Assembly: GCF_000154725.1 (NCBI RefSeq)
Contig: NZ_DS544873.1
Span: forward strand, 4,313,085 to 4,377,084
From: Kordia algicida OT-1
GTDB lineage: Bacteria; Bacteroidota; Bacteroidia; Flavobacteriales; Flavobacteriaceae
Direction of reading: 5' to 3'
DNA: 64,000 nt
Below are positions 9,702 to 32,938 of this stretch, in pieces. The position numbers and the translations under genes are program-made. Within the stretch, counting starts at the first letter, position 1. Each line of letters opens with the position of its first letter. A model generated the notes under the pieces. It searched no databases, was not told the origin of the DNA, and saw nothing but the letters and a program-made list of their open reading frames with translations.

Positions 9702-9725
9702 CGGTACTCGGAAACGGTACTCTTT
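9702..9725. other. Putative attL of the island
   Basis: Two direct CGGTACTC octamers at 9702-9709 and 9715-9722, 13 bp apart, the second inside AAACGGTACTCTTT (9712-9725). The same 14-mer recurs in the same orientation at 32915-32928, 10 bp after the integrase stop codon. Direct repeats bracketing a block with an integrase at one end are the mark of site-specific integration. That this is the crossover site is an inference. Confidence 0.65.
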
Positions 9726-12727: not shown

Positions 12728-12772
12728 AATAATATCAATTAATGTTGAAAACACTAAGCTAAAAAGCATATT

Positions 12773-14365: not shown

Positions 14366-16186
14366 ATGATTAAAGAAACAATAATTAAAGAATCTGTTAG
14401 TTTAATTTCAGCAATTGTAAGTAACAGGTTTAAAAAAATAAAAATAAAATCTGATAAGAAGGAAATTGAAAAATCAATTAATAATCATATTAGATATGTT
14501 AAGAATTGGTCTAATGAAATAACATTTAAAGATTTAAAAAACTCTAAACAAACTTCAAGAATTTTTATACCTTTAGATCTGTATATCTATCCTAAAAGAG
14601 TAAGAATTGTAGAAGAAGAAAAAATTACTGTAATTCCCTTTTTGCAGGCTTTGGAAAGAGAAAAAAATCATTTGGCAATTCTAGGTCAGCCTGGAGCAGG
14701 AAAAACCACTTCAATGAAGCATTTATGCCAATCTATTTTTTTTGACGAGAACTTTTTTCCAAATAGGTTTAAATATCCAATTTTAGTAAAACTACGTGAA
14801 TTTAATAAGAATAGAAGTAAAGATTCTTCAGGTATAATAATAGAGTATTTGTTTGGTGTTTTAGGATTAAAAATCAGTGATGATGATAACAAAATCATAC
14901 AAACAGCAGAAGATTTAAACCGAGTTAAATCAAACTTAGTCATCGAAATATTAGAAAAACTGAATGTTTTGCTGATTATAGATGGTTTCGATGAGTTACA
15001 TTTTAAGAGTCATAAGGAGATTATTCTAGATGAAGTTACTAATATCGCATCAAAATTAGAGAATTCTAAATTAATACTTACTTCACGAACAGCAGATTTT
15101 AGCTACAGTAATGAAAGCATATCAGTTTATGAAATATGTCCATTAAATGAAATTCAGATTCAAAATTTTGCTAAAAAGTGGCTTGGAGTTATTAGTGCAA
15201 AAAAATTTCTCGAAGAGGTAAGAGAGTCTCCATACAATGATACATCAATAAGACCATTAACTATTGCACATTTATGTGCTATTTATGAAAGACTTGGTAA
15301 AATTCCTGACAAACCAAAAACTGTATATAAAAAAATAGTTAACTTACTACTTGAAGAATGGGATGAGCAAAGAAGAATAAAAAGAAGTTCAAAATATGCT
15401 ATGTTTGAAATTGATAGAAAATTTGAGTTTTTATCTAACTTATCTTATCATTTAACAACTAAAAATAACAAGGTAATATTTTCTAAAAAGGATTTAGAAA
15501 TTGTTTATAGAGTTATCTATCATGATTTTGACTTAGATTATAATGAAGCTAAAAGTGTCATCAATGATATTGAATCTCATACTGGTTTATTTGTTCAATC
15601 TGGTTTTGAATTTTATGAGTTTGCGCATAAATCTATTCAAGAGTTTTTGACAGCAGAATATCTAGTTAAATTACCAAATATAATAGGAAATAAAAGATTA
15701 ATAGAAATGCTACCTAATGAATTAGCAATAAGTATTACGATTTCCTCCAATCCAAGCCTATATTTCAGTGAATTAATTTCAATATTTATAAAAAAGAATG
15801 TCTCTTTTATTTTTATTCAAAAGTTTATTAACAGACTTATATTGGAAAAACCAGATTTTTATAAGAATTCAAAAGTCGGAATCAGTGCTTTACTTTTGTA
15901 CTCAAAATATGTTCAAAGTGAAATTCAAGATAAAAATCAATTAGCCTTGTTTACAACGGATATATTAGTTGATAGCTTTGAAAATTTGATTGATTCAATA
16001 TTTAAGCGAAATTCAAAAAGTATAATATTGGACATTTATAACATTGATAGTGAAATGCACACTGTCAATCAAACACAAATTTATCTCTTGTCAAAAAAGG
16101 GTAAAAAGAAAGGGGAGAGTATTGAATCAGATATATATCATAAAATGCCAAAATATCTTTATTGTCGTAAAACCTTTGTAGAGTAA
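14366..16186 (+). CDS. NACHT-domain NTPase (bacterial NLR-like)
   Basis: A 606-residue STAND-class NTPase. Walker A is LAILGQPGAGKTTSM (107-115), Walker B is LLIIDGFDEL (about 202-211) and a sensor-like LILTSRTADF follows, the NACHT arrangement. About 90 residues precede the NTPase (with HIRYVKNWSNEITF) and about 200 follow it; there are no obvious leucine-rich or TPR repeats. The N-terminal block and short C terminus recall the short bacterial NACHT proteins shown to give phage resistance, but I cannot confirm the clade. Its codon use is very AT-rich. It sits alone on the plus strand between an HTH gene and the Dnd operon, consistent with a defence island. Confidence 0.82.
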   Translation: MIKETIIKESVSLISAIVSNRFKKIKIKSDKKEIEKSINNHIRYVKNWSNEITFKDLKNSKQTSRIFIPLDLYIYPKRVRIVEEEKITVIPFLQALEREKNHLAILGQPGAGKTTSMKHLCQSIFFDENFFPNRFKYPILVKLREFNKNRSKDSSGIIIEYLFGVLGLKISDDDNKIIQTAEDLNRVKSNLVIEILEKLNVLLIIDGFDELHFKSHKEIILDEVTNIASKLENSKLILTSRTADFSYSNESISVYEICPLNEIQIQNFAKKWLGVISAKKFLEEVRESPYNDTSIRPLTIAHLCAIYERLGKIPDKPKTVYKKIVNLLLEEWDEQRRIKRSSKYAMFEIDRKFEFLSNLSYHLTTKNNKVIFSKKDLEIVYRVIYHDFDLDYNEAKSVINDIESHTGLFVQSGFEFYEFAHKSIQEFLTAEYLVKLPNIIGNKRLIEMLPNELAISITISSNPSLYFSELISIFIKKNVSFIFIQKFINRLILEKPDFYKNSKVGISALLLYSKYVQSEIQDKNQLALFTTDILVDSFENLIDSIFKRNSKSIILDIYNIDSEMHTVNQTQIYLLSKKGKKKGESIESDIYHKMPKYLYCRKTFVE

Positions 16187-16304
16187 TTCATTATAACCTT
16201 AGCTAAAAGACTTGACTATACTTATTAATACCATATTTTTAGAATATTAGCTATTTCCAAATTGGTGTTTCTCATTTATTCGTTAAAGTTTTAGGATACT
16301 AACT

Positions 16305-17549
16305 TTAATCTGTAACAGGAACTATATGATTGTAATAATCTTCATTATAATTCTCATAAATTTCCTTGATACGACCTTGAATATCATAGTTGTCAATATT
16401 CAAATCTCCCAAAAGGTGCAAAAATAGTCTCTCCTTTAATCTTAATTCTTTTGGTACCATTCTTCCATTATTCCAAAAAATATAATTTAATGTGTCTCCT
16501 GAAAGATTAAAATCTATTTTTCTAATATTCTCTTTTAAATAATCTAAATTATTAGAATCCATAAAGTGTTTATAGGTTTTTGCAATGAAATGTTGTCCGA
16601 CTGGTCTTAAAATAAGACTCCCACCACTATTAGGATTTCTATCAAATAAATCTTCATTCAAAAAAATATTTCTTTCACCATCAATGAATCTTGCTATTTC
16701 AGGGAAGACTTCAAATAAAAAATCCCAAAATGATTTAGATAATTGATAATATTCTTCTATATCTTCATCTGTTGGTCTAACTGTATAGAAGCTATTCCTT
16801 TTGTTATAAAGAACTTTATTTATCCTATACACAGTAACTAAGGTTGTGAAACTATCAAAATCATTTGCTGAAATATTACCAGTTTTGGTATCACTAAGAC
16901 TATTTTGTTTAGATAAATGCTGATGTTCTGTTATTAAACGTCTTGAATTTATAGCTGCTACATCATCCTCTTCTAAAATTATTAATTCAGCTTCTTTTGG
17001 TTTTTCAGCATATTTATTTAAGACAGTGAATAGTCTTCTGGTTTTTTCTATATAACTATCATCGTGTATAACATACACTAATGATATTTCTTCTTCTCCA
17101 ATTTCATTATTTTTTCTGAAAGCATCTCTTAAACCTTTTAATCTATGCTGTCCATCAAGCGCAAATATTTCTTCTTCTCCTGATAAAGTTAATATCCCAA
17201 ACTTATTTTCAATAAAACTTAAACTTTCATCATCTAATTTTTCTCCCTTTATTGAAAAAAGACTGTTTATTGATACATCAGACCATTCAGGATTTCCTTT
17301 ATGTATTCCAACAATAATACTACTAAAAAAGTGTTCATCATTTTCTAGTAAATATTTAGATATTTGAGAAATACGTTTTTTATTTATTTCTCTTTGTAAT
17401 ACCCGATTAATATTTTCTGTGTAAAGTTCAGACTCTGCAACAGTAATAATCCTATTACCTTCAACAATGTCTTTTATTTTCATTACTGTAGAAAAATAAG
17501 TCCATTCTCCAATACGACCTCTTAAACAAGGTAAATTAATTTTTGCCAT
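16305..17549 (-). CDS. dndB: DndB, DGQHR-domain regulator of DNA phosphorothioation
   Basis: A 414-residue protein with the diagnostic motif FALDGQHRLKGL (DGQHR at 132-136). In characterised Dnd systems DndB is a transcriptional repressor of the cluster that also affects modification level. Here it is last in the minus-strand operon, 3 bp after the GIY-YIG-like gene, which places a putative repressor at the distal end. Length and motif fit the family. The 118-bp gap to the convergent NACHT gene has a weak TTAAAGTT/AACTTTAA stem overlapping the stop codon. Confidence 0.85.
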   Translation of the reverse strand: MAKINLPCLRGRIGEWTYFSTVMKIKDIVEGNRIITVAESELYTENINRVLQREINKKRISQISKYLLENDEHFFSSIIVGIHKGNPEWSDVSINSLFSIKGEKLDDESLSFIENKFGILTLSGEEEIFALDGQHRLKGLRDAFRKNNEIGEEEISLVYVIHDDSYIEKTRRLFTVLNKYAEKPKEAELIILEEDDVAAINSRRLITEHQHLSKQNSLSDTKTGNISANDFDSFTTLVTVYRINKVLYNKRNSFYTVRPTDEDIEEYYQLSKSFWDFLFEVFPEIARFIDGERNIFLNEDLFDRNPNSGGSLILRPVGQHFIAKTYKHFMDSNNLDYLKENIRKIDFNLSGDTLNYIFWNNGRMVPKELRLKERLFLHLLGDLNIDNYDIQGRIKEIYENYNEDYYNHIVPVTD

Positions 17550-17552
17550 AAT

Positions 17553-18071
17553 CTAATTGTATAAACTTCTTGTATTCTGAGCCTCATCAATTCTGTATTG
17601 AACATTTAAAGGTGGGATAATATAATTAACTAATTGATTTTCTATATCTGCAATGTCATTATCACTTATCTCACTTAAATCATAAAAATAGACATTGGTT
17701 GAGCCATACCAAGCATTAGCCATTAGTTGTCTATTTCTTTTAATATTCATATTACCAATTGCCTTAACATACTCATAGAAACGCTTAAAAAAAGTATTAT
17801 TATTAATTACTCTACCAATATAGATTAAATAATTTATTTCTGGAGAAAAAGGGAAATTAGGCTCAACAACAAACATATAAATACCTTTTTTATTTTTAAT
17901 GTTCCGTGGTAGGTTTTCTCTGATGTTCTCATCAAATGCAATCTTGACTGGATTTGGTAATACTATTGGTAAATTAAATCTGTTCCATAGATCTATATTC
18001 ATTGTTAAAGGAAGATCATAGATTTTTTCTGGATTAACACTATTTAATTCATCTAAAGAAAGAGCTGGCAT
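17553..18071 (-). CDS. GIY-YIG-like nuclease-fold protein within the dnd operon
   Basis: A 172-residue protein. KKGIYMFVVE (about residue 70) and LIYIGRV (about residue 91) match the GIY and YIG strands; FFKRFYEYV supplies the Arg-containing helix, and ENQLVNYIIPPLN near the C terminus has the Glu and Asn usual in these nucleases. The first 60 residues are an extra N-terminal segment. It lies 6 bp downstream of the DndE-ATPase gene and 3 bp upstream of dndB, so it belongs to the Dnd operon. With no DndFGH nearby, it is a candidate nuclease partner of the modification, but catalytic activity is not proven by sequence. Confidence 0.72.
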   Translation of the reverse strand: MPALSLDELNSVNPEKIYDLPLTMNIDLWNRFNLPIVLPNPVKIAFDENIRENLPRNIKNKKGIYMFVVEPNFPFSPEINYLIYIGRVINNNTFFKRFYEYVKAIGNMNIKRNRQLMANAWYGSTNVYFYDLSEISDNDIADIENQLVNYIIPPLNVQYRIDEAQNTRSLYN

Positions 18072-18077
18072 AAATAA

Positions 18078-19631
18078 TTATTTAGTATTAAAAATCTCTC
18101 CAAAATTAAACTCCTTAATATTGGTAATAGCTTGTCGAGGGTTAATTGTTTCCATAGAACGATTTATTTTGGTTCGTTGTTTTTCCCCAGCGCCAAGAAA
18201 TTTACTTATTGATTTCCAGTTGTTACCATCTTTGATTGACATTAAGAATGCTGACTGGCACATAGAAGAAAAATCAAAGGTTGGCTGATTAAATTCTTCG
18301 ATTCCTTGTGAAACTAACATCACAGCTACACCTTGCGATCGTATTTCTCTTAGTAATTTTTCAAGTATTTCTTGCGATTTCTTTTCTTTGAATACATTAT
18401 GCGCTTCGTCAATTAAGAGAACGTAGCGTAATCCGCTATAATCATCTTCAATAGGAGCTTTATCCATATTCATAAATGTGTTATACAGATAGTAAATTAC
18501 TAGGAATGTCGCTGTAAAACGTACTTCTTTACTCAAATCTCCCGAAAGACTTAAATAATAATTTGAATTGATGAAGTCTCCATATTTTTCGTTATCAAAT
18601 AACTCGATCTCAGTTAATCCGATCAATATTTGTGTGAGTGATGTGGGCTTATCTCCTGCAATTTCATAAACATTTTCTAAAACATCTTTCAATGTTGGGT
18701 ATGAACCGTCATTTCTATCTTCAAAAGCATTTATTGTAGCATCTTTAAGATTTTGTTTTTGCACATTCCCAAGATTAGCGTATTTGGTAATTATATCTAC
18801 AAATCTACCAATACCCACAATTTTATTTTTTTCATTGACATTATCTATAAATGATAAAGGATTTACAGGGAAAGAATTTTGTGGCGTATCAACCAATTGA
18901 GCATTAGTAGTTTTGAAAAAGCTTTTAAAGTCAGTACTTGATTTATCACTTTCATTTAAGCCTTTAAAATCAAGATACAAAAAATTAACTCTGCCATTAG
19001 TTCCTTGCACTATGCGTTCTAAAATTTTTCTTGAGAAATATGACTTTCCTGTTCCAGAATTTCCAGCAACCGCAATATGACAATTGCCGTAAATTGATGT
19101 GTTATTGGGAGTGAAATAAATTTCATCTCCATTTTCAGTTTCTCCAACTAAAATTTTGATAGGCTTGGTAAAACTCTCTTTTTCATTCAATGAAGAGTTA
19201 TTGTTTTTAGTAAATTCAAATGAATTTTCATGCTCATTCATTGAATCAATACCTATTTCAATATTGTCTAGCAAGAATTCAATACCAGAAAAGTTTTGGT
19301 TATCTTCAAAAAACTTATTTATCAATTCCAATCCTTGATCTATGTGCATTTTGAGATACTTTCTAATATTGGAGTCGTCCTTGTGTATTTGATATCTTTG
19401 ACAGATTAATGCAACATAATACTCTTTGAAGCTTCCAAATAAAGTATGATCTTTATATTCTTTACCACCAAAGGGTTGTAAATCTCTTTCTAAATCCAAA
19501 CTATAACCTTTGCTTAAAGAATAAGCTAAAGCTATCCTAGATATGTGATTTTCTGAACCAAGACCTATTTTTTGGGTTAAGGATTTTACTAATGGCTCAT
19601 TTTCTGGCGATGTACTTATATTAAATTGCAT
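18078..19631 (-). CDS. dndE: DndE fused to a HerA/FtsK-like ATPase
   Basis: About 517 residues from the ATG at 19631 (MQFNISTSPENEP). The longer reading to 19688 adds 19 residues inside dndD and is less likely. Residues 1 to about 115 read as DndE: a small helical domain with NHISRIALAYSLSKG and FGSFKEYYVALICQRY, normally about 110-130 residues on its own. The rest is an additional P-loop ATPase with Walker A AVAGNSGTGKSYF (189-197) and Walker B RYVLLIDEAHNVF (about 400), plus an arginine-containing LLREIRSQGVAVMLVSQ strand, as in HerA/FtsK DNA pumps. The start codon overlaps the dndD stop by 11 bp. Free DndE binds nicked DNA; coupling to a motor suggests DNA translocation (inference). Confidence 0.82.
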   Translation of the reverse strand: MQFNISTSPENEPLVKSLTQKIGLGSENHISRIALAYSLSKGYSLDLERDLQPFGGKEYKDHTLFGSFKEYYVALICQRYQIHKDDSNIRKYLKMHIDQGLELINKFFEDNQNFSGIEFLLDNIEIGIDSMNEHENSFEFTKNNNSSLNEKESFTKPIKILVGETENGDEIYFTPNNTSIYGNCHIAVAGNSGTGKSYFSRKILERIVQGTNGRVNFLYLDFKGLNESDKSSTDFKSFFKTTNAQLVDTPQNSFPVNPLSFIDNVNEKNKIVGIGRFVDIITKYANLGNVQKQNLKDATINAFEDRNDGSYPTLKDVLENVYEIAGDKPTSLTQILIGLTEIELFDNEKYGDFINSNYYLSLSGDLSKEVRFTATFLVIYYLYNTFMNMDKAPIEDDYSGLRYVLLIDEAHNVFKEKKSQEILEKLLREIRSQGVAVMLVSQGIEEFNQPTFDFSSMCQSAFLMSIKDGNNWKSISKFLGAGEKQRTKINRSMETINPRQAITNIKEFNFGEIFNTK

Positions 19632-21732
19632 CTTGATAATCTTTTTCAAAAACGTCAAACAATTCTTCTTTATTCTCAACTTGTTCAAAAGTAGATCGCT
19701 CGTTATCCGTATTTTTAATTAGGTAAGTCTTACTTATACTAGGCAATAAGATATTAAATTCATCTTCGGTCATTTCTTTTTTCAATAAAGGGAAGATAAT
19801 TACTTGATTTGACACATGTGGATAAAAATGTTTCACTATACTATTGGAATGATCTATATCAAACTTCTGCATCGGAGAATCTATAAATACAGGGAAATCT
19901 ATATTAGATTCATCCACAAGTCCTTTCAATAAAGCGGTTGCATACATTTGTTGCTCTCCTTTGGAAAGCGAATCCTTATTTATTTCTTTTCCTCTTCCGT
20001 CAATTAGATTGATTTCTATATCATCGCCCAAAATTTCTACTTGAACGTCACTTATAAAACTTCTTTTATGAAGTAGAATATCTAAACCATCTTTTATTCT
20101 TTTGGATAGACTGTGCTTTTTCTCAATTTTAAAGTCTCCAATGAATTTCTTTAGATATTTTATTGATTTCTCTACTTCTTGGCTAATTTGTTGTTTACCT
20201 TTTGATACTTTTAGTTTATCAGATATTCTTTTAATCTCTTTTTTTGATTTTATCTTGACATCATTATTTGTTTCAATTTCCTGTTCAAGTACACCAATAT
20301 TCCTAAGAATTGCATCATATTCATTTTCTAATTGATGTTTTCTCTCCCTATCAGCTTTTACAAGTGGATTTTCTGATTTTTCTTCGGCTAATTTAATTTG
20401 TTTATTAATGTCGTTTAACTCATTTTTTGATCTAATATAATCAGAGTTAATTCGATTGAACGTTTCTTTAAAAGACAATTTTATGTTATTAATAAATTGA
20501 TTTAACTCTGATTTTTCTGATTCAGAAAAGCTATGTATGATTTCAATAGAGGCTTCCGATTTTGGTTGTTTTTCTGATTCCCCTCCAATATGCTTCTGTA
20601 TTAGTTGTTTTAGATTATCAATATAATATTCTTGTACTTTATAATTTATTACAAGGTCGTCAGGATGGGGTATTTTTATGAGGTCATTAATTATGTTATC
20701 TGTTATTTTTTCAACTTTATCTTCATTAAATTTTTGACTAATTAAATCCCTTTCAATTATAATTTGTTCCAAAACTTCAGTTAATAAATTGCCAGCGATT
20801 GCAAAAGGAATTATTTCATAATGCTTCTTCAACTCAGAATTTAAAATACCTACTTGTTTTTCTAAATCTTCTTTTCTCGCTTTTAATTCATTTAGTTGTT
20901 CAACAGTAATAACACTACCTTGCTTTATAAGCTTTTCCTGTAATTTATTGATCTCATATTTCATTCCAGAAGCTTCTTCTTCTAGGTTCTTGGTTTCATC
21001 TTGGATTTCCTTTATTCTGTCATCAGCAATTTCCACATCAGTTTTTAGCCTTTTCAACTCGGCTTTTTCTTTCGCATTAGCAGTTTCAGATTTCAATTTT
21101 TCCAAATATTGCTCTAAATCTTCTTTCAGACTTTGATATTGCTTAATTCCTAAAACCTCAGAAAAAGCATTACTTAATTTTTGTCTTTGTTCAGCAGTAT
21201 GAATTTCGGCTAATGAAACTATTTTTTCTGCATCAAAAAAGAAAAACTTTGCGATTTCCATAGGCATAATGAAATCACGTATAAAGTGTTCTGCACCTAT
21301 ATTTTTCACTAATTCACTTTCATAGCCATCAATTAGTATATCTAAGTTTTCATCTTTATTTCCTTCTGTAAAATAAGTTCTCGTTATCTTTAGTTCATTA
21401 CAGGTAACATCAGGTATTGTAGTAATGCCTGAAAATGTAACAGATACTGAGAATTTAGTTTTTCCTTCAAACTCAGCTTGTTTATTTAAGCTACTCTTTA
21501 TGTATTGACGATAATTACCATTATTTTGGATTTCGTTTTTATAGATGTCATCTACATCACTCATTTGACGCCCGTATAAACACCATACTAAAGACATCAG
21601 AAATGTGGTTTTTCCAAAACCATTCTTACCGCTAACAATAATAATATTTTCATCATCTGTTACTGACAAATCAATAATATTATTCCCTTTATAGATTCTG
21701 AAATTATCTAGTTCAATGGATTTTATTATCAT
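19621..21732 (-). CDS. dndD: DndD, SMC-like ATPase of DNA phosphorothioation
   Basis: A 703-residue ABC-type ATPase of the Rad50/SMC kind. Walker A is VSGKNGFGKTTF (35-42), the central about 400 residues are coiled coil (long Glu/Lys/Leu-rich heptads around 210-300 and 430-560), the signature is SLSKGEQQMYATAL and Walker B is FPVFIDSPMQKFD. In Dnd systems DndD supplies ATPase activity for sulfur incorporation, probably by opening or nicking DNA. It abuts dndC (stop and start adjacent at 21733/21732) and overlaps the DndE-ATPase start by 11 bp, so expression is translationally coupled. Confidence 0.9.
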   Translation of the reverse strand: MIIKSIELDNFRIYKGNNIIDLSVTDDENIIIVSGKNGFGKTTFLMSLVWCLYGRQMSDVDDIYKNEIQNNGNYRQYIKSSLNKQAEFEGKTKFSVSVTFSGITTIPDVTCNELKITRTYFTEGNKDENLDILIDGYESELVKNIGAEHFIRDFIMPMEIAKFFFFDAEKIVSLAEIHTAEQRQKLSNAFSEVLGIKQYQSLKEDLEQYLEKLKSETANAKEKAELKRLKTDVEIADDRIKEIQDETKNLEEEASGMKYEINKLQEKLIKQGSVITVEQLNELKARKEDLEKQVGILNSELKKHYEIIPFAIAGNLLTEVLEQIIIERDLISQKFNEDKVEKITDNIINDLIKIPHPDDLVINYKVQEYYIDNLKQLIQKHIGGESEKQPKSEASIEIIHSFSESEKSELNQFINNIKLSFKETFNRINSDYIRSKNELNDINKQIKLAEEKSENPLVKADRERKHQLENEYDAILRNIGVLEQEIETNNDVKIKSKKEIKRISDKLKVSKGKQQISQEVEKSIKYLKKFIGDFKIEKKHSLSKRIKDGLDILLHKRSFISDVQVEILGDDIEINLIDGRGKEINKDSLSKGEQQMYATALLKGLVDESNIDFPVFIDSPMQKFDIDHSNSIVKHFYPHVSNQVIIFPLLKKEMTEDEFNILLPSISKTYLIKNTDNERSTFEQVENKEELFDVFEKDYQDAI

Positions 21733-23070
21733 TTAATTAGTAATAAATTGTTTATATCTATTTTCAATATCTTCAATTAAACCTCGTCTTTTCATCATAA
21801 TAGTTTTTGATTTTTCAAGCTTTAATAAATCTTGAATAAGACTAAAATGTTTTTTGTCATTCTCACAAGCTGACAATAAAATTTCTTCTTCTTTTCTTAT
21901 TAGTTCGTTGTGTTGTTTCATATCAAGGTCTTTATTAAAAACTTTATTGTATATGTCAGATACTTTAAAATCAAAATATAAATCTCTGTACCATGTAACT
22001 TGAATTGCTATTAGTTCTTGATTATTTATCAACTCTATATCAATTCCCATATCATTGATTTTCTTCTGAGCCTCAAAAACTTTTTCTAATATTTCTACTC
22101 TATGTTTTTGTATTACATAACCACCATTGGGTACTGCGGCTAGAGTTCCATTCCTTCTATAATCTGACCTGTTTTCAGGGTTATTTCGTTGTTCTTGAAT
22201 CCAGTCTCTAACATCTCTTAAAGGAACTAGCCATTCTTGACCATTTTCTATTTGAGCCGAAATTGATTTATCTTTCCTTACAACAGTACAAGTCCAGCAT
22301 CCAAATCTACTTTGCCCACAAGATTTATGTTCTTTATTAGATACCATCGTTGGACATTCATAATCATCAGCACTTGCGTCAGAATAAATGTTAAACAATT
22401 GATTTTTTTCTGCTCCCCAGGGAGATTCAAATGTGTTAATAATATACCAAATCTCCTCTAAATAAAGCTCCTTAATGGGCGAATAAACGAATACATTTTT
22501 TTGAAGCGGATGTTTAGTCAAACGCTTCCCTTTAATTTCATGTTTCTTAATAGACTTTGCTCTGGAGGCACTTTCACTTTTTCTTGTTCCTACTAAAACA
22601 ATTGCTTCTTTGTGTTCATTATCTTCACTGTTAACAATATCATCAATGAATCTTGAAGTTGGTTTTATTTTTAATCTTTCGGTACACCATCTAAAAGCGT
22701 TATTAGGAGCAGGATATCCTTTGCCTATCAAATTTACCCAGAAAGAGTCTTCCAATCTTGGTATAGTCTTTTTCACTTTAATAGGTAAATTATGTCTAAC
22801 AGCGGCAGTTTTAATTTTTTCTAATATTCCGTTAACATAATTTGTTATTATAGGGTTTTCAACTAAAGTATCATTGCATACAACCCAGACTTCTCTTTTT
22901 AGAAACTTTTCATCAATATCATTTTTAATTTTCAATAAACTCAACCAAACCAAAGTTAACATTACAGTTGAATCTTTACCACCACTAAAACCAATTATCC
23001 AAGGTCGATTATTGTCATCTATGGTATATTGGTCGATTATTTCTTCAATAATATAATTTGTCTTTTTCAT
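21733..23070 (-). CDS. dndC: DndC, PAPS-reductase-like sulfurtransferase
   Basis: A 445-residue PP-loop protein. The ATP-pyrophosphatase motif is IIGFSGGKDSTVML (SGGKDS 29-34). A cysteine set for an Fe-S cluster follows at about 238-262 (CPTM, then SCGQSRFGCWTCTV). DndC activates the sulfur acceptor in DNA phosphorothioation, receiving sulfur from a cysteine desulfurase, DndA or a housekeeping IscS. No desulfurase gene is in the window, so a chromosomal IscS/SufS is presumably used. It is the first gene of the minus-strand dnd operon, which therefore begins in the gap at 23071. Confidence 0.92.
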   Translation of the reverse strand: MKKTNYIIEEIIDQYTIDDNNRPWIIGFSGGKDSTVMLTLVWLSLLKIKNDIDEKFLKREVWVVCNDTLVENPIITNYVNGILEKIKTAAVRHNLPIKVKKTIPRLEDSFWVNLIGKGYPAPNNAFRWCTERLKIKPTSRFIDDIVNSEDNEHKEAIVLVGTRKSESASRAKSIKKHEIKGKRLTKHPLQKNVFVYSPIKELYLEEIWYIINTFESPWGAEKNQLFNIYSDASADDYECPTMVSNKEHKSCGQSRFGCWTCTVVRKDKSISAQIENGQEWLVPLRDVRDWIQEQRNNPENRSDYRRNGTLAAVPNGGYVIQKHRVEILEKVFEAQKKINDMGIDIELINNQELIAIQVTWYRDLYFDFKVSDIYNKVFNKDLDMKQHNELIRKEEEILLSACENDKKHFSLIQDLLKLEKSKTIMMKRRGLIEDIENRYKQFITN

Positions 23071-24374: not shown

Positions 24375-24453
24375 TTGAGTTCAAAAAAGGTGCAGTACAC
24401 TCGCTATACATTTAATTATGTATGGTTATCTATTAATTTAAAATTTTCAAAAT

Positions 24454-24678
24454 ATGAAAAAACTTCAAAAGCTTAAGAATAAGCTTAGTACGCAAAACCT
24501 TGTTACTGAAAATCAAATGTATTACATAACAGGGATGCAAAATCGTTACAAGTCTTATAGTGTCTGTATTGACTCTACCGATGGTGAGAACGGCTGTGAT
24601 AATCAGCATACAAAAACTAAGGACTATGAGGACGGAACAACAACGACTACAGTTACAATTGTTGAGTTTGAGTGCTAA
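24454..24678 (+). CDS. GRASP-with-SPASM RiPP precursor peptide 1
   Basis: A 74-residue peptide. The leader MKKLQKLKNKLS with a YYITGM block (residues 23-28) is shared with the next gene, while the C-terminal core is rich in Thr, Asp, Glu and Lys (TKTKDYEDGTTTTTVT) and has three Cys. Paired hydroxyl or amine side chains with acidic residues are what ATP-grasp ligases link in graspetides. It is the first of two precursors immediately upstream of the ATP-grasp and SPASM genes. Crosslink positions cannot be told from sequence. Confidence 0.85.
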   Translation: MKKLQKLKNKLSTQNLVTENQMYYITGMQNRYKSYSVCIDSTDGENGCDNQHTKTKDYEDGTTTTTVTIVEFEC

Positions 24679-24709
24679 TTAATGTCTAATTATTAAAAAA
24701 ATATATAAC

Positions 24710-24937
24710 ATGAAAAAACTTCAAAAACTAAGCAAAAAGCTTAGCGAAACGAATGTATTAAATACAGGAGAAGCATTCTACATTACTGGTGGAGAAGAAA
24801 GAACAAGCTGGTGTTGGTCTAAAACCGATACTTGCCATGATGGTATTTCAGATGTTCATTTTACTCGTACCAAAGATGGTGTAGTCATTACTGATACTGT
24901 TACTGACTGCGATGAAACTTGTGGTCAAGGTCAATAA
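24710..24937 (+). CDS. GRASP-with-SPASM RiPP precursor peptide 2
   Basis: A 75-residue paralogue of the preceding peptide, 31 bp downstream. The leader is MKKLQKLSKKLSETN followed by FYITGGEE; the core differs but keeps a TRTKD-x-TDTVT stretch equivalent to TKTKD-x-TTTVT in copy 1. It has four Cys (WCW, DTCHD, DCDETCG) and many acidic residues near the C terminus. The conserved leader and divergent core are the standard RiPP pattern and suggest that both are substrates of the same enzymes. Confidence 0.85.
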   Translation: MKKLQKLSKKLSETNVLNTGEAFYITGGEERTSWCWSKTDTCHDGISDVHFTRTKDGVVITDTVTDCDETCGQGQ

Positions 24938-24958: not shown

Positions 24959-25903
24959 ATGCTACTAATTATCACATCAGAACAAGATCATTCTTCTCTT
25001 TTAGTAATTGATTGGTTAAATCATATAGGTCTTCCGTGGATTCGTATAAATGAGAAAGATGCGATAGAATTGTCATTTATTGAAAATGATATAAAATTTC
25101 AATTGGAATCTTTCTCATTTTTACTTTCTGAAATCAAAGTAGTTTGGTATCGACGAGGTTTTTTAAACTTTAAATTTTTTATCTCAAAACTTTTTGATGT
25201 TGATGAGTTTAGAAGAATTGAACTAAAAAAACTAAAAGAATACATTTATTACAAGTTATCTCAATTACCAAATATTAACCGATTTGAAAATGCTGATGTT
25301 AACAAACTAATTGTAACTGAAAAAGCAAGTGAAGTAGGATTGTTAACTCCAAAGGAATACTTAGTAAGTAATAAAGAAATTCTTCAAAAAATACTAACAA
25401 GTACAAATACAGAGCATGCAACAAAATCAATTTCAGGTTATGGTACAATTTCTTCCGATACTGTTAACTATAAGATTCTAACCAAAAAGCTTGATGATGC
25501 TAATAGCACACCAGAAAACTTCTTTCCTAGTTTAGTTCAGGAATATATCGAAAAAAGATATGAATTACGTATTTTCTATATGCACGGAAAATTCTGGTCA
25601 ATGGCAATATTTTCACAGAGTGATGATACTACGGAAGTCGACTTTAGAAACTACAATATAGTTAAACCCAATAGAAATATTCCTTTTAATGTTCCGCATC
25701 ACATCAAACAAAAAATAATAAAACTTATGGAAAAACTTGATTTGAATTGTGGCTCAATAGATATGATTGTAACACCACAGCTTGAGTTTGTTTTTCTTGA
25801 AGTAAATCCCGTTGGACAGTTTGGAATGGTTTCATACCCTTGCAATTATTATTTACATCGAGAAGTTGCTCAACATTTACATACCCTATCACATGGAAGC
25901 TAA
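24959..25903 (+). CDS. gwsG: ATP-grasp peptide maturase (GRASP-with-SPASM system)
   Basis: A 314-residue ATP-grasp ligase similar in length and layout to graspetide (microviridin-type) ligases. It has VVWYRRGF near residue 62, a central Lys-containing KSISGYGTIS strand, LVQEYIEKRYELRIFYMHGKFWSMAIFSQ, and the C-terminal metal/ATP block EFVFLEVNPVGQFGMV with the Glu and Asn that bind Mg-ATP. Family members join side chains of the precursor as ester or amide links. It is 21 bp downstream of precursor 2 and overlaps the next small gene by 11 bp, so the set is one operon. Confidence 0.9.
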   Translation: MLLIITSEQDHSSLLVIDWLNHIGLPWIRINEKDAIELSFIENDIKFQLESFSFLLSEIKVVWYRRGFLNFKFFISKLFDVDEFRRIELKKLKEYIYYKLSQLPNINRFENADVNKLIVTEKASEVGLLTPKEYLVSNKEILQKILTSTNTEHATKSISGYGTISSDTVNYKILTKKLDDANSTPENFFPSLVQEYIEKRYELRIFYMHGKFWSMAIFSQSDDTTEVDFRNYNIVKPNRNIPFNVPHHIKQKIIKLMEKLDLNCGSIDMIVTPQLEFVFLEVNPVGQFGMVSYPCNYYLHREVAQHLHTLSHGS

Positions 25904-26102
25904 AAAAACAAAAGAAGAAATAGTTGAACATCTTGAAAGAACAAAAGGTATTCTACCTTTAATTCTACATGATGTGAATGTCACTGTAATTGAGAAAAAT
26001 AACAAAGTAACGGGAAAACTCATTACTGTACCTAGTTACAAAACGTCTGGAATTTCAATTTCAAATTATTTGAAACACGTAACACGATTTCCACATGAAT
26101 AA
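25893..26102 (+). CDS. Small protein between the ATP-grasp and SPASM genes
   Basis: A 69-residue protein from the ATG at 25893 (MEAKKTKEEIVEHLERTKG); a longer reading from 25812 would lie inside gwsG and is rejected. The start overlaps the gwsG stop by 11 bp and the stop overlaps the gwsS start by 8 bp, which implies translational coupling and a real gene. An N-terminal helix is followed by ILPLILHDVNVTVIEKNNKVTGKLITVPSY, predicted beta strands. No family recognised. It may be a leader-binding or chaperone-like accessory of the maturation enzymes (inference). Confidence 0.7.
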   Translation: MEAKKTKEEIVEHLERTKGILPLILHDVNVTVIEKNNKVTGKLITVPSYKTSGISISNYLKHVTRFPHE

Positions 26103-27171
26103 AAAGTATTTCAACCTTTTTGCTAACTGTTTTATAGTCAAAGGATACAATCGTAGTTTGATTTTTGACTCACAAAGAATGAAGACTGTTTTTGTTCCTA
26201 ATGATATGTATGATATTGTTATTAAGGCAAAAAGTATAAGTATTCAACAAATTTATGAGGAATATGGAATTGATAATAAAGAAATCATTGATGAATATTT
26301 TGATTCATTAATTGAAAGTGAATTAGGTTTTTATATGTCAGAAAAAGAACGAGATTTTTTTCCAGAGATTAACACGGCATATCATTCTCCTTTTCAGATT
26401 ACTAATAGTGTACTTGAAGAAATGAGAGACATGAAGCTATATAAAAAGGTAATTTCACAACTAGAAGCATTAGATTGTCAATACGTAGAACTTGTATTCT
26501 ATAATAATACATCCAATGAGTTTTTGACAAATATTCTATCTCTTTTCAAATTGTCATCAATAAAATTTATAGGCTTGATTATTCCTTATGACAGCACAAA
26601 AACTCCTGAATTTATCAAAAAAATATGTTCACAAAACTTACGACTGAATAAAATATTAGTACATAATGTTCAAGTACAGGAAAAGCCTAAAAATATAACT
26701 TTAGGTCTTACAGAAATAATATATGTAAATAAAGAGTTTACCAACTTTTCATATTGTGGAAATATTAGTAAAAAATTCTTTTCTCCAAGTTTAGAGCATT
26801 ATGTGGAATCTCAGAATCACAATACATGTCTGAATCAGAAAATTTCCATTGACTCTCAAGGAAATATTAAAAACTGTCCTGCAATACCCAATAATTTTGG
26901 AAACATCAAAGACGTAACACTAACAGAAGCCATCAATACACAAGGTTATAAGCAATTATGGAGCATATCCAAAGATCATATTGAAGTCTGTAAAGATTGT
27001 GAGTTTAGGCATATATGTACAGATTGTCGTGCATTTACGGAAAATCCCAAAGATAACTACTCAAAACCCTTAAAATGTGGGTACAATCCATACACAAATG
27101 AATGGTCGGAATGGTCAACGAATCCTTTAAAACAAAAGACTATAGAATATTACAATATAGAGACGAGTTAG
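26095..27171 (+). CDS. gwsS: SPASM-domain peptide maturase (GRASP-with-SPASM system)
   Basis: A 358-residue protein. The C-terminal third is a SPASM domain with its cysteine pattern: CLNQKISIDSQGNIKNCPAI, a GNIKDVTL turn, then CKDCEFRHICTDCRAFTEN and a last Cys in LKCGYNP. The N-terminal 240 residues have the size of a radical SAM barrel, but I find no CxxxCxxC; the place where it would be expected reads AYHSPFQITNS. The protein therefore seems to keep auxiliary cluster ligands while lacking the canonical SAM-binding cluster. It follows the 69-residue gene with 8 bp overlap and ends the operon. Confidence 0.88.
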   Translation: MNKKYFNLFANCFIVKGYNRSLIFDSQRMKTVFVPNDMYDIVIKAKSISIQQIYEEYGIDNKEIIDEYFDSLIESELGFYMSEKERDFFPEINTAYHSPFQITNSVLEEMRDMKLYKKVISQLEALDCQYVELVFYNNTSNEFLTNILSLFKLSSIKFIGLIIPYDSTKTPEFIKKICSQNLRLNKILVHNVQVQEKPKNITLGLTEIIYVNKEFTNFSYCGNISKKFFSPSLEHYVESQNHNTCLNQKISIDSQGNIKNCPAIPNNFGNIKDVTLTEAINTQGYKQLWSISKDHIEVCKDCEFRHICTDCRAFTENPKDNYSKPLKCGYNPYTNEWSEWSTNPLKQKTIEYYNIETS

Positions 27172-29945: not shown

Positions 29946-30607
29946 CCTATCGCTAAGCGGTAAGTTAATTTTTTCTCATCATGTTCTATGAAAAAAGCAA
30001 ATATAAATCTATATTTTTTCTAGCTGATTGCTCAGTGATTAGCAAATATTTTCAGCTTACTGCTAAGCAATGAGTTGAGCAAAAGAAAATATTATCCTTA
30101 AACGAATCACTTAATGATTAGTTGTTTTTTTATATCAGATTTTTAGCTTACTGCTAAATGATAAATTTGATTTTCCAACTAATCGCTAAGTGATGAGCAG
30201 ATTTTTAATGATGGATTTTCAAATTTTCATGGAGTAAATAATTTGTTTCTTTTTCACTAGTCGCTAAACGATAAGTTCGATTTTTCAACTAATCGCTAAG
30301 TGATGAGCAGATTTTTAATGATGGATTTTCAAATTTTCAAGAAGTAAATAATTTGTTTCTTTTTCGCTAGTCGCTAAACGATAAGTTCGATTTTCCAACT
30401 AATCGCTAAGTGATGAGCAGATTATTAGAAGCAGATTTTCAAATTTTCATGAAGCAAATAATTTATTTCTTTTTCACTAGTTGCTAAACGATAAGTTCAA
30501 TTTTCCAGCTAATCGCTAAGTCATGAGCGAATTTTTAGTTGTAGATTTTCAAATTCCATGAAGCAAACAATTTTTTTCTTTTCCACAAATTGCTAAACGA
30601 TCAATTT
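29946..30607. repeat. Array of about 13 imperfect-dyad elements in non-coding DNA
   Basis: About thirteen copies of a roughly 20-bp element, consensus CTnnTCGCTAAnnGATnAG, occur between 29946 and 30607. Many are partly self-complementary (for example CTAATCGCTAAGTGATGAG). In the first part the copies are diverged and irregular (about 29946, 30023, 30054, 30103, 30146). From about 30178 two forms alternate: a CTAATCGCTAAGTGATGAG form (30178, 30288, 30398, 30508) and a CTAGTCGCTAAACGATAAG form (30256, 30366, 30476, 30585), inside a conserved unit of about 110 bp repeated four times. There is no ORF. It is not a CRISPR array, because the spacing sequence is itself repeated. Confidence 0.85.
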
Positions 30608-31555: not shown

Positions 31556-32905
31556 ATGGCAAAACGAAAGCACATGCCTAACAACAAACACAAAGGACTC
31601 TTTATTTACTGTCATGTCTGTAAAAAGCATTTCTCATGGACTAGAAAAACAGTTTTACGAAACACCAAAAAAGTAAAGGAAGAACCTACTTGTGGAGAAT
31701 CGGGCAAAAATTATTCTACCTGCAAACATTTTGAAAAGCATCGTTACAAATCTCGATTGCACGTTCCAGGAAGTGAAGGACGTAAAGCGAGTAAAACACA
31801 CGATGCTACTAATTATGTCGATGCAGTAATTCAAGCAATTGATTTTGAAAAAGAATTCAAAGCCGAATTACAGGGATGGGGGCAACCGATTGAAATCAGA
31901 AATAGGCAATATTTATTTGATATACAATTACGGTACATTGATTTTTTAGATAATATAGATGTTCCTGAACATCAAAAAAACACGCTGTCTGAACAGCGTA
32001 AAAATGAAATTGTAAACTGTTTAAAAATATTTAATCAGGCATTAGCAAAATACAATATCAATAAAAAGCTATTTATTATTAATCGTCTTAACGATGCACA
32101 CGTAGGTTTATTCCATGATTACTTATTAGTTGATAAGAATTACAAGGGAAACACCTACAACGGTAAAATGAGCGTTTTAAAAACGTTTGTAAGCTGGGCA
32201 ATTGATCGGTATAATATAAACATGAAAAACCCTTTTGAAAAGGTTAGAATGATTCCTGTCATGGTCAAACGTGATACGATTACAAAAGAAGAATTTAAAA
32301 ACCTATTAAAAATCATAAAACCCGAAAATGGAATAGAAATTCAAGGAAAGTACAAACGAAACAGATACAAGCTGTATTTAAAAGATGCTTTAGAACTAGC
32401 GTTGCATACAGGCGGAAGACGTGAAGAAGTAGTAGGACTCAAATGGAATATGATTCGCGAAAAGAATGGCGAACCAGTCTACATAGAAGTTCCCAATCTC
32501 AAAGTAAAGAGAAAAAAAGGAGAATACTTCAATCAGAACGTTCCACCAAAGATAGTTCCTGTAACAAAAAGTCTAAAGAATATCTTATATCGCTTAGGAT
32601 ATGATATGAACAAAGGAAAGGATAGATATCTATTAAATCCAGACAAAAGAACGGCATCGTCCACCAAATCAATGAATGACGCTTTATCATTAGGATTTTC
32701 ACATTTCTACAAGCAATTAAACACAGGTAGAGAATTACAGTTTAAATGCCTTAGAAAAACATACTTGACCTATCTATCATCTACTTTGAAAGGAGATGCA
32801 AAACGTCTATCTTCGCACGCAACAGATACAGTCTTAAAAAAGCACTATATTGACGAGCGAATCGTAGACAAAGCTATCAAAGAATTAGATATATTTGAAG
32901 ATTAA
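31556..32905 (+). CDS. Tyrosine recombinase / integrase of the island
   Basis: A 449-residue protein. The N terminus has a zinc-finger-like Cys pattern (YCHVCKKHF, then CGESGKNYSTCKHFEKH). A SAM-like core-binding region follows (about 110-230). The catalytic domain shows HTGGRREEVVGLKW (Arg box I, about residue 286), LQFKCLRKTYLTYL (box II, with Lys-Cys in place of the usual His-x), SSHATDTVLKKHYID (box III His about 420 and nucleophile Tyr about 430). It ends 10 bp before the right direct repeat, the usual place for an integrase gene beside its att site. The CLRKT variant of box II is also known in other Bacteroidota integrases. Confidence 0.9.
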   Translation: MAKRKHMPNNKHKGLFIYCHVCKKHFSWTRKTVLRNTKKVKEEPTCGESGKNYSTCKHFEKHRYKSRLHVPGSEGRKASKTHDATNYVDAVIQAIDFEKEFKAELQGWGQPIEIRNRQYLFDIQLRYIDFLDNIDVPEHQKNTLSEQRKNEIVNCLKIFNQALAKYNINKKLFIINRLNDAHVGLFHDYLLVDKNYKGNTYNGKMSVLKTFVSWAIDRYNINMKNPFEKVRMIPVMVKRDTITKEEFKNLLKIIKPENGIEIQGKYKRNRYKLYLKDALELALHTGGRREEVVGLKWNMIREKNGEPVYIEVPNLKVKRKKGEYFNQNVPPKIVPVTKSLKNILYRLGYDMNKGKDRYLLNPDKRTASSTKSMNDALSLGFSHFYKQLNTGRELQFKCLRKTYLTYLSSTLKGDAKRLSSHATDTVLKKHYIDERIVDKAIKELDIFED

Positions 32906-32914
32906 AAAACTAGA

Positions 32915-32938
32915 AAACGGTACTCTTTGGCGGTACTC
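32915..32938. other. Putative attR of the island
   Basis: AAACGGTACTCTTT at 32915-32928 repeats 9712-9725 exactly. CGGTACTC occurs at 32918-32925 and again at 32931-32938, the same 13-bp register as at the left end. A crossover here would leave a chromosomal site with three CGGTACTC copies spaced by 13 bp. Confidence 0.65.

What the first reader, a model, noticed from the sequence alone, without database searches (positions are those of the whole stretch)
16305..23070. Dnd phosphorothioation operon with DndE fused to a DNA-pump-like ATPase and no DndA/DndFGH
The operon reads dndC-dndD-dndE-ATPase-GIY-YIG-dndB. In the standard layout DndE is a stand-alone protein of about 110-130 residues. Here it continues into a HerA/FtsK-type domain with Walker A AGNSGTGKS and Walker B LLIDEAH. 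The window has no DndFGH restriction genes and no cysteine desulfurase. A modification set carrying its own motor may be a distinct Dnd subtype. Seen: motifs, overlaps and gene order. Known: roles of DndB, C, D and E. Inferred: motor function.
Basis: partly seen in the sequence, partly recalled or inferred. Interest (0 to 1): 0.78.

Follow-up and report, generated by a model that had tools for sequence, protein, structure and literature searches.

The report
DNA-sulfur defence operon with swappable effector
A Bacteroidota genome carries, on a 23-kb mobile island, a known variant of the machinery that puts sulfur into the DNA backbone; the fused motor that caught attention is already described, but next to it sits an exchangeable two-gene cassette (a predicted nuclease plus a DGQHR protein) that other bacteria replace with a membrane-protein version or other genes, which suggests how these systems change weapons while keeping the same DNA mark.

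Summary
In detail: dndC-dndD-dndE::HerA-GIY-YIG-dndB lies on the minus strand at 16305-23070. The fusion passes Pfam's DndE cut-off, and its ATPase half best matches the C-terminal motor of DndH. DndF, DndG and DndH are absent from the whole genome; desulfurases lie only elsewhere. But this subtype is already published as DndEi (2016; cited in PMC7464106; fusion also noted in PMC10853773).

What I found unreported is the pair after it. The GIY-YIG protein keeps every catalytic residue. In 66 other DndEi loci the dndCDEi core is steady while the slot behind it is exchanged as a block: GIY-YIG+DGQHR protein, 3-4-helix membrane protein+DGQHR protein, a ParB-like pair, or GHKL-ATPase+methyltransferase. 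The DGQHR tree separates GIY- from membrane-linked forms with one change (100/100); the DndEi tree rejects this grouping (AU p 8e-11). The rule predicted the partner in 9 of 9 proteobacterial plasmid loci, some next to ordinary dndB or ssp genes. So this 'DndB' is a satellite with a dedicated partner.

Best reading: a split SspE/DndI-like module, DGQHR sensor plus separate effector. The cassette is well supported; the mechanism is inferred. New variant of a known kind.

The parts
21733..23070 (-). dndC, phosphorothioation sulfurtransferase (PP-loop SGGKDS and cysteine motifs seen)
   Evidence: TIGR03183 403.7 bits, above its cut-off
19621..21732 (-). dndD, DndD-type coiled-coil ATPase without a CxC zinc hook
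   Evidence: TIGR03185 274.1 bits, above its cut-off; PADLOC scores PbeC model PDLC02742 higher
18078..19628 (-). dndEi: DndE domain (about 19619-19308) fused to a DndH-type HerA/FtsK ATPase domain (about 19241-18192); the open ORF starts at TTG 19688
   Evidence: Pfam DndE 71.8 bits; PADLOC DndH 102 bits over residues 150-499; 23% identity over 190-524 to a DndH in G311
17553..18071 (-). GIY-YIG nuclease, 172 aa, dedicated partner of the downstream DGQHR gene
   Evidence: invariant G63, Y65, Y84, G86, R97, Y101, E144 in 11 homologues; fold best to T4 EndoII, UvrC, Hpy188I, Eco29kI
16305..17549 (-). DndB-like DGQHR protein, 414 aa, ParB/Srx fold; satellite form, not the canonical DndB equivalog
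   Evidence: PF14072 126 bits, TIGR03187 112.6, TIGR03233 only 87 of 328; fold
16194..18073 (.). exchanged segment: replaced by membrane protein + TIGR04172-type DGQHR gene in Kordia L007, with homologous DNA on both sides
   Evidence: blastn WIN/L007: 87.4% over 5,057 bp on one side, 93.5% over 3,114 bp on the other, no match between
14366..16186 (+). NACHT-domain protein convergent to the operon; shared with L007 at 98% protein identity
13094..14242 (-). 382-aa protein of unknown function, shared with L007 at 87%
31556..32905 (+). tyrosine recombinase (integrase) at one edge of the island
   Evidence: Pfam Phage_integrase and Phage_int_SAM_5, weak
9702..9725 (.). putative left end of the island, CGGTACTC twice, 13 bases apart
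   Evidence: direct repeat with 32909-32928; CGGTACTC occurs only 4 times in the window, two at each end
32909..32938 (.). putative right end of the island, CGGTACTC twice, 13 bases apart
   Evidence: flanks nearly adjacent in G179 and G300

Best explanation
The operon is a DndEi-type phosphorothioation system on a 23-kb integrative island. DndC, DndD and DndEi, with sulfur from a housekeeping NifS/IscS-like desulfurase, mark host DNA; DndEi's DndH-type motor serves the modification complex (as published for DndEi). The next two genes are one exchangeable defence cassette: a ParB/Srx-fold DGQHR protein that senses whether DNA carries the sulfur mark (inferred), and a GIY-YIG nuclease that it licenses or restrains (inferred), so that unmarked invader DNA is cut. 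It is a two-gene counterpart of SspE and DndI, where a DGQQR NTPase domain is fused to an HNH nuclease. Other hosts keep the same modification core but plug in a membrane protein with its own DGQHR partner, which would act by damaging the infected cell's membrane (inferred). Shown: gene content, catalytic residues, folds, pairing, block exchange. Inferred: sensing, control of the nuclease, membrane action.
For: Pairing: GIY-YIG next to a DGQHR gene in 11 of 11 DndEi loci, membrane protein next to a DGQHR gene in 20 of 21 (the other at a contig end), and no DGQHR gene in the 17 loci of the other two cassette types. Profile search of 395 Bacteroidota genomes: all 3 strong GIY hits sit beside the DGQHR gene, one in a permuted dndC-D-GIY-B-Ei operon and one in an ssp + CxC-ATPase neighbourhood. 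Out of sample, 9 of 9 plasmid loci had the predicted partner. DGQHR tree: GIY vs membrane = 1 change, 100/100. DndEi tree: 7 GIY/membrane changes, 20 over four states (shuffle mean 24.2), GIY clade rejected p 8e-11. Four pairs with both flanks shared and a different cassette. Active-site residues invariant. GIY-YIG folds lead the structure list. DGQHR motif invariant in 28 and ParB/Srx fold with SspE (Z 4.9) and DndI (Z 3.6) in the list. No DndFGH in the genome. The satellite occurs beside canonical dndB in Rhizobium NXC14 and Aliivibrio, so it is not merely that repressor.
Against: No activity has been measured. The fold matches to SspE and DndI are weak (Z under 5) and reflect the whole ParB/Srx superfamily, so PT sensing is an analogy. 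The GIY model is of moderate confidence (pLDDT 63). Canonical DndB is a reported repressor of dnd genes (PMC4507180), and this homologue could regulate too. Some loci carry a further HARE-Mrr nuclease after the cassette, so GIY-YIG need not be the only effector. The conserved motor in every cassette type could also serve restriction.
Confidence: 0.55

Rival explanations
1. The DGQHR protein is an ordinary DndB repressor tuning phosphorothioation, and the GIY-YIG gene is a standalone backup suicide nuclease without direct link to it, as proposed for URI/GIY-YIG genes at the edges of Dnd systems (PMC10853773).
For: Canonical DndB is a reported repressor (PMC4507180); the 2024 survey lists URI nucleases near Dnd genes as likely suicide effectors.
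Against: The protein misses the DndB equivalog cut-off by far (87 of 328). It is a satellite found in addition to canonical dndB in two plasmids. The partner is fixed: the DGQHR type predicts GIY or membrane protein in 9 of 9 new loci and by a single split in the tree. Canonical DndB at the head of dndBCDE has no such partner.
Confidence: 0.2
2. The DndH-type motor fused to DndE drives restriction: DndEi pumps DNA for the GIY-YIG nuclease, a stripped-down DndH replacement, and the DGQHR protein only regulates.
For: The motor half is closer to DndH's C-terminal domain than to other HerA families; DndH carries nuclease and motor in one chain (PMC10853773).
Against: The motor is equally present where the cassette encodes a membrane protein or no nuclease, and DndEi is reported essential for modification itself (title cited). 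GIY-YIG + DGQHR also occur with ssp-type cores lacking DndEi.
Confidence: 0.12
3. The GIY-YIG protein is a homing-type enzyme that moves the cassette, or a nickase that helps sulfur incorporation, rather than an effector.
For: GIY-YIG domains are common in homing enzymes (general knowledge); the cassette is clearly exchanged as a block.
Against: Membrane-protein and other cassettes exchange in the same slot without any GIY-YIG gene, and the same modification cores occur without it. Flanking homology on both sides suffices for exchange by recombination.
Confidence: 0.08

Closest known systems
DndEi phosphorothioation systems (Riemerella and other Bacteroidota; Zheng et al. 2016; PMC7464106; 'clade-3' DndE-HerA fusions in PMC10853773)
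   Same: dndC-dndD-dndE fused to a helicase/HerA-type ATPase, in Bacteroidota
   Different: Nothing in the core. The adjoining GIY-YIG + DGQHR cassette and its exchange were not found described in the papers searched.
SspE (SspABCD-SspE) and DndI (IscS-DndBCDE-DndI), PMC11662687 and PMC9646914
   Same: ParB/Srx-type NTPase domain with DGQxR motif and a nuclease activity, coupled to a phosphorothioation module
   Different: Here the DGQHR protein and the effector are separate genes; the nuclease is GIY-YIG, not HNH; membrane versions have no nuclease; sensing not tested
TIGR04172, DNA phosphorothioation-associated DGQHR protein 1 (PMC3226654, 2011)
   Same: A DGQHR satellite always next to phosphorothioation genes; the membrane-linked relative in L007 scores 437.9 of 450
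   Different: The window's protein is the other, GIY-linked class (31.9 of 450). The partner gene was not named in the 2011 paper's passages read; partners in the plasmid records are annotated 'hypothetical protein'
DndFGH / DndH
   Same: DndH-type HerA/FtsK motor domain
   Different: Fused to DndE; no DndF, DndG, DndH in the genome
Canonical DndB
   Same: PF14072 and DGQHR motif
   Different: About 50 residues longer, misses the equivalog cut-off, has a dedicated partner, and occurs alongside canonical dndB elsewhere

Membership tests
DndEi-type phosphorothioation system | DndE domain fused N-terminally to a HerA/FtsK-type ATPase | tested here: met
   Pfam DndE above cut-off, DndH-type motor behind it
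DndEi-type phosphorothioation system | adjacent dndC and dndD | tested here: met
   both above NCBIfam cut-offs
DndEi-type phosphorothioation system | phosphorothioate in genomic DNA (GAAC/GTTC context) | not testable with these tools
   needs LC-MS or iodine cleavage
Canonical DndABCDE-FGH | stand-alone DndE of about 110-130 aa | tested here: not met
   only DndE hit in the genome is the fusion
Canonical DndABCDE-FGH | DndF, DndG, DndH in the genome | tested here: not met
   with positive control G311
Canonical DndB equivalog (TIGR03233) | score above the curated cut-off | tested here: not met
   87.1 of 328 bits
DGQHR / DndB superfamily (PF14072, TIGR03187) | score above cut-off, DGQHR motif | tested here: met
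   126.1/29.1 and 112.6/58.85 bits; DGQHR invariant
GIY-YIG nuclease superfamily | GIY, YIG, Arg, Tyr/His, Glu catalytic set | tested here: met
   invariant in 11 homologues; UvrC-like cross-hits of the profile
GIY-YIG nuclease superfamily | fold | tested here: met
   T4 EndoII Z 8.6, UvrC 6.9, Hpy188I 5.7, Eco29kI 5.6; model confidence moderate
GIY-YIG nuclease superfamily | Pfam cut-off of GIY_YIG_2 | tested here: not met
   16.4 of 22.4 bits: a divergent member at most by this test
SspE/DndI family | DGQxR NTPase domain fused to an HNH nuclease in one chain | tested here: not met
   separate genes, no HNH domain found; 'works like', not 'is'
SspE/DndI family | PT-responsive NTPase activity | not testable with these tools
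   needs biochemistry
PbeABCD / CxC-ATPase system | CxC zinc hook in the ABC ATPase and HKD-SF2 restriction gene | tested here: not met
   no CxC in the DndD sequence; TIGR04095 gives only sub-cut-off helicase hits

The most novel reading that the evidence does not exclude
Phosphorothioation systems carry a general, two-gene plug-in defence cassette: a long DGQHR sensor with a matched effector, either a GIY-YIG nuclease or a small multi-helix membrane protein. It is exchanged as a unit between otherwise near-identical modification cores and shared between Dnd and Ssp systems, so that hosts change the killing mechanism without changing the DNA mark.
Probability: 0.55. Interest if true: 0.75.

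Novelty: new variant of a known kind. Interest (0 to 1): 0.56.

Why it matters
Many phosphorothioation loci lack DndFGH, and what restricts phage there is an open question. This gives named, testable candidates: small genes annotated 'hypothetical' beside the DGQHR gene, with a rule that predicts which kind each will be. It also separates the satellite DGQHR proteins from the repressor DndB, with which they share a name, and would extend DNA-sulfur defence from DNA cutting to membrane effectors.

Tried and rejected
Novelty of the DndE-motor fusion: rejected, published as DndEi. The 2016 JBC paper itself is not held, so its results are cited from its title only. DndFGH elsewhere in the genome: rejected; the first DndH search had no positive control, hence the repeat with G311. 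HKD-SF2 phosphorothioation restriction enzyme: only generic helicase cross-hits. The window's DndEi or GIY protein on sequenced plasmids: no match, although DNA-translocase FtsK genes are annotated next to dndD on Rhizobium and Aureimonas plasmids. Two family searches failed on wrong coordinates. Foldseek alone gave no significant match for either model; the second-look aligner was clearer. att core in the empty sites of relatives: not found, so the exact recombination core is unproven. Literature on a GIY-YIG or membrane partner of DndB: none found beyond the general remark in PMC10853773, but subscription papers and supplements are not covered.

Full report
WHAT IS THERE. The five genes lie head to tail on the minus strand at 16305-23070. 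DndC and DndD pass their NCBIfam equivalog cut-offs. The third protein has a DndE domain (Pfam 71.8 bits, cut-off 25) followed by an ATPase domain with Walker A AGNSGTGKS and Walker B LLIDEAH (sequence). PADLOC's best match to the ATPase half is the C-terminal part of DndH (102 bits), and a DndH from a genome that has both gives a direct alignment. The likely start is ATG 19628, not the TTG at 19688 (516 aa). The whole genome, one closed contig of 5.03 Mb, has no second DndE and no DndF, DndG or DndH; each of those models rings in the control genome G311. A NifS/IscS-like desulfurase is encoded far away, and housekeeping IscS is known to replace DndA (PMC3519819, abstract).

THE FUSION IS KNOWN. 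A DndE with an added helicase domain was named DndEi in 2016; the paper is not held, but its title states helicase activity essential for phosphorothioation and ATPase activity stimulated by GAAC/GTTC DNA (cited in PMC7464106; PMC7692671; that it was studied in Riemerella is from my own knowledge). PMC7464106 reports it from Prevotella and Bacteroides. PMC10853773 describes HerA/FtsK domains fused to DndE and related to one clade of DndH motors. Taken alone, the fusion would deserve a low score.

THE SLOT BEHIND IT. A scan of species genomes gave 66 further DndEi loci, nearly all Bacteroidota. dndC-dndD-dndEi is constant wherever the contig reaches, apart from a few broken or partly matched dndD genes. 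What follows dndEi is not constant: 11 loci, the window included, have a GIY-YIG gene then a DGQHR (DndB-like) gene; 21 have a small protein with mostly three to four hydrophobic segments (simple hydropathy), of which 20 are followed by a DGQHR gene; 10 have a ParB-like pair; 7 have a GHKL ATPase with a putative methyltransferase, often with a HARE-Mrr nuclease. Eighteen loci were not assigned, several because the contig ends. In 17 loci a desulfurase gene (dndA-like) lies convergently beyond the slot, so the slot is framed by modification genes on both sides; the window's own subclade lacks it.

BLOCK EXCHANGE. In four pairs both flanks are homologous while the cassette differs. For the window and L007 (Kordia sp.), 5,057 bp at 87.4% end four bases past the dndEi stop, and 3,114 bp at 93.5% resume beyond the cassette; the 1.9 kb between shares no DNA match. 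The others are two Pontibacter species (GIY versus membrane), two Flavobacterium species (GHKL versus membrane), and L048/L049, whose core DNA is 99.4% identical (GHKL versus membrane). On a tree of DndEi the four cassette types need 20 changes (shuffled mean 24.2), GIY versus membrane needs 7, and one clade of GIY loci is rejected (p 8e-11). On a tree of the DGQHR proteins, GIY-linked and membrane-linked forms are separated by one branch with full support. The partner and the DGQHR protein thus travel together, and the core does not travel with them.

TEST ON NEW LOCI. The rule was derived from Bacteroidota. Plasmid records of other phyla were then searched with the two DGQHR types. Six records with the L007 type had a small gene directly upstream, all six matching the membrane-protein profile (E 6e-10 to 7e-22 for four, 7e-9 and 4e-13 for two); three with the window type had a small gene directly upstream, all three matching the GIY profile (E 1e-24 to 4e-27), with GIY and YIG motifs visible. 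All nine partners are annotated 'hypothetical protein'. Short canonical DndB proteins at the head of dndBCDE have no such partner. Rhizobium sp. NXC14 and Aliivibrio wodanis carry the satellite in addition to canonical dndB. Roseobacter litoralis and G578 carry GIY + DGQHR beside SspB, SspC and SspD genes, and G596 has the order dndC-dndD-GIY-dndB-dndEi. In 395 Bacteroidota genomes the only strong GIY-profile hits are three, all next to the DGQHR gene; the weak hits are mostly long ORFs of UvrC length (about 600-650 aa), which also supports the GIY-YIG assignment.

WHAT THE TWO PROTEINS ARE. Eleven GIY proteins, as little as 16% identical to the window's, keep G63, Y65, Y84, G86, R97, Y101 and E144, the catalytic set of GIY-YIG nucleases (established knowledge). 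The model is of moderate confidence (pLDDT 63), yet GIY-YIG nucleases take 9 of the first 10 places: T4 EndoII Z 8.6, UvrC 6.9, Hpy188I 5.7, Eco29kI 5.6; unrelated folds follow from 4.0 down. The tenth entry is the N-terminal domain of a plant glutaredoxin at Z 6.7. The DGQHR protein (pLDDT 83) has a ParB/sulfiredoxin fold: Noc/ParB Z 7-7.7, Srx 5.9, SspE 4.9, BrxU 4.4, DndI 3.6. These Z values show the superfamily, not a special tie to SspE.

HOW IT MOST LIKELY WORKS. Inference: DndCDEi marks host DNA; the DGQHR protein reads the mark and controls its partner. With GIY-YIG the outcome is cutting of unmarked DNA; with the membrane protein it is membrane damage in the infected cell. SspE and DndI provide the precedent of a DGQQR NTPase domain joined to a nuclease in PT-sensing defence (PMC11662687, PMC9646914). 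The pairing, exchange and active site are shown; sensing and control are not. DndEi's motor is constant across cassette types and therefore probably serves modification.

MOBILITY. The operon lies in a low-GC stretch with a tyrosine recombinase at 31556-32905. The motif CGGTACTC occurs four times in the window, two at each end (9702, 9715; 32918, 32931), within a direct repeat 23.2 kb apart. In a same-genus genome and in the Kordia genome of L007 the matches to the two flanks are 135-336 bp apart, so the island is absent there; the Kordia copy of the operon sits elsewhere. The relatives' empty sites do not contain the motif, so the exact core is not proven.

LIMITS. Loci were found with patterns from the window's DndEi, so distant DndEi systems are under-sampled. 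Membrane segments come from a simple hydropathy window. The ParB-like and GHKL cassettes occupy the same slot but their function was not studied. Absence of prior description rests on an open-access library only.

Noticed in passing
window 9702-32938: About 23.2-kb integrative island with tyrosine recombinase and repeated CGGTACTC at both ends; empty in G179 and G300. It carries the Dnd operon, a NACHT protein, a 382-aa protein, an 894-aa N6-methylase-like protein and a RiPP cluster.
   Followed up: partly
window 24959-27171: Grasp-with-spasm peptide maturation pair: ATP-grasp (TIGR04192, 457.8 bits) and SPASM protein (TIGR04193, 542 bits), with short repeated ORF starts (ATGAAAAAACTTCAAAA) at 24429-24488 and 24685-24744 that may be precursor peptides.
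   Followed up: partly
window 10085-12769: 894-aa protein with an N6-methylase domain at its C-terminal part only and nearly 700 residues of unassigned sequence; no PADLOC match and only a negligible NCBIfam one. Candidate further defence or modification gene.
   Followed up: no
window 30153-30601: Four copies of a 110-bp tandem repeat in a gene-poor stretch inside the island.
   Followed up: no
G000:C1:4168314-4169415 (L002, L004): SufS-like cysteine desulfurase split over two reading frames in a closed genome: frameshift, pseudogene or assembly error.
   Followed up: no
L018:11580-14650, L022, L048, L054, L056, L059, L070: In the same slot: GHKL/MORC-like ATPase + Methyltransf_35 (putative O-methyltransferase), often with a HARE-Mrr nuclease; apparently another exchangeable cassette of phosphorothioation systems.
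   Followed up: partly
L026, L033, L036, L038, L039, L042, L044, L066, L067 (slot after dndEi): Pair of about 360 and 320 aa in the slot; the first looks ParB-like by sequence but has no significant Pfam match (weak hits only).
   Followed up: no
L104:4723-11512: Permuted operon dndC-dndD-GIY-dndB-dndEi in a distant Bacteroidota genome, with the cassette inside the core.
   Followed up: partly
window 14366-16186: NACHT protein (606 aa) with partial similarity to the antiphage NACHT family EruA (73.7 bits, far below cut-off), 98% identical in Kordia L007 although the cassette next to it differs.
   Followed up: no
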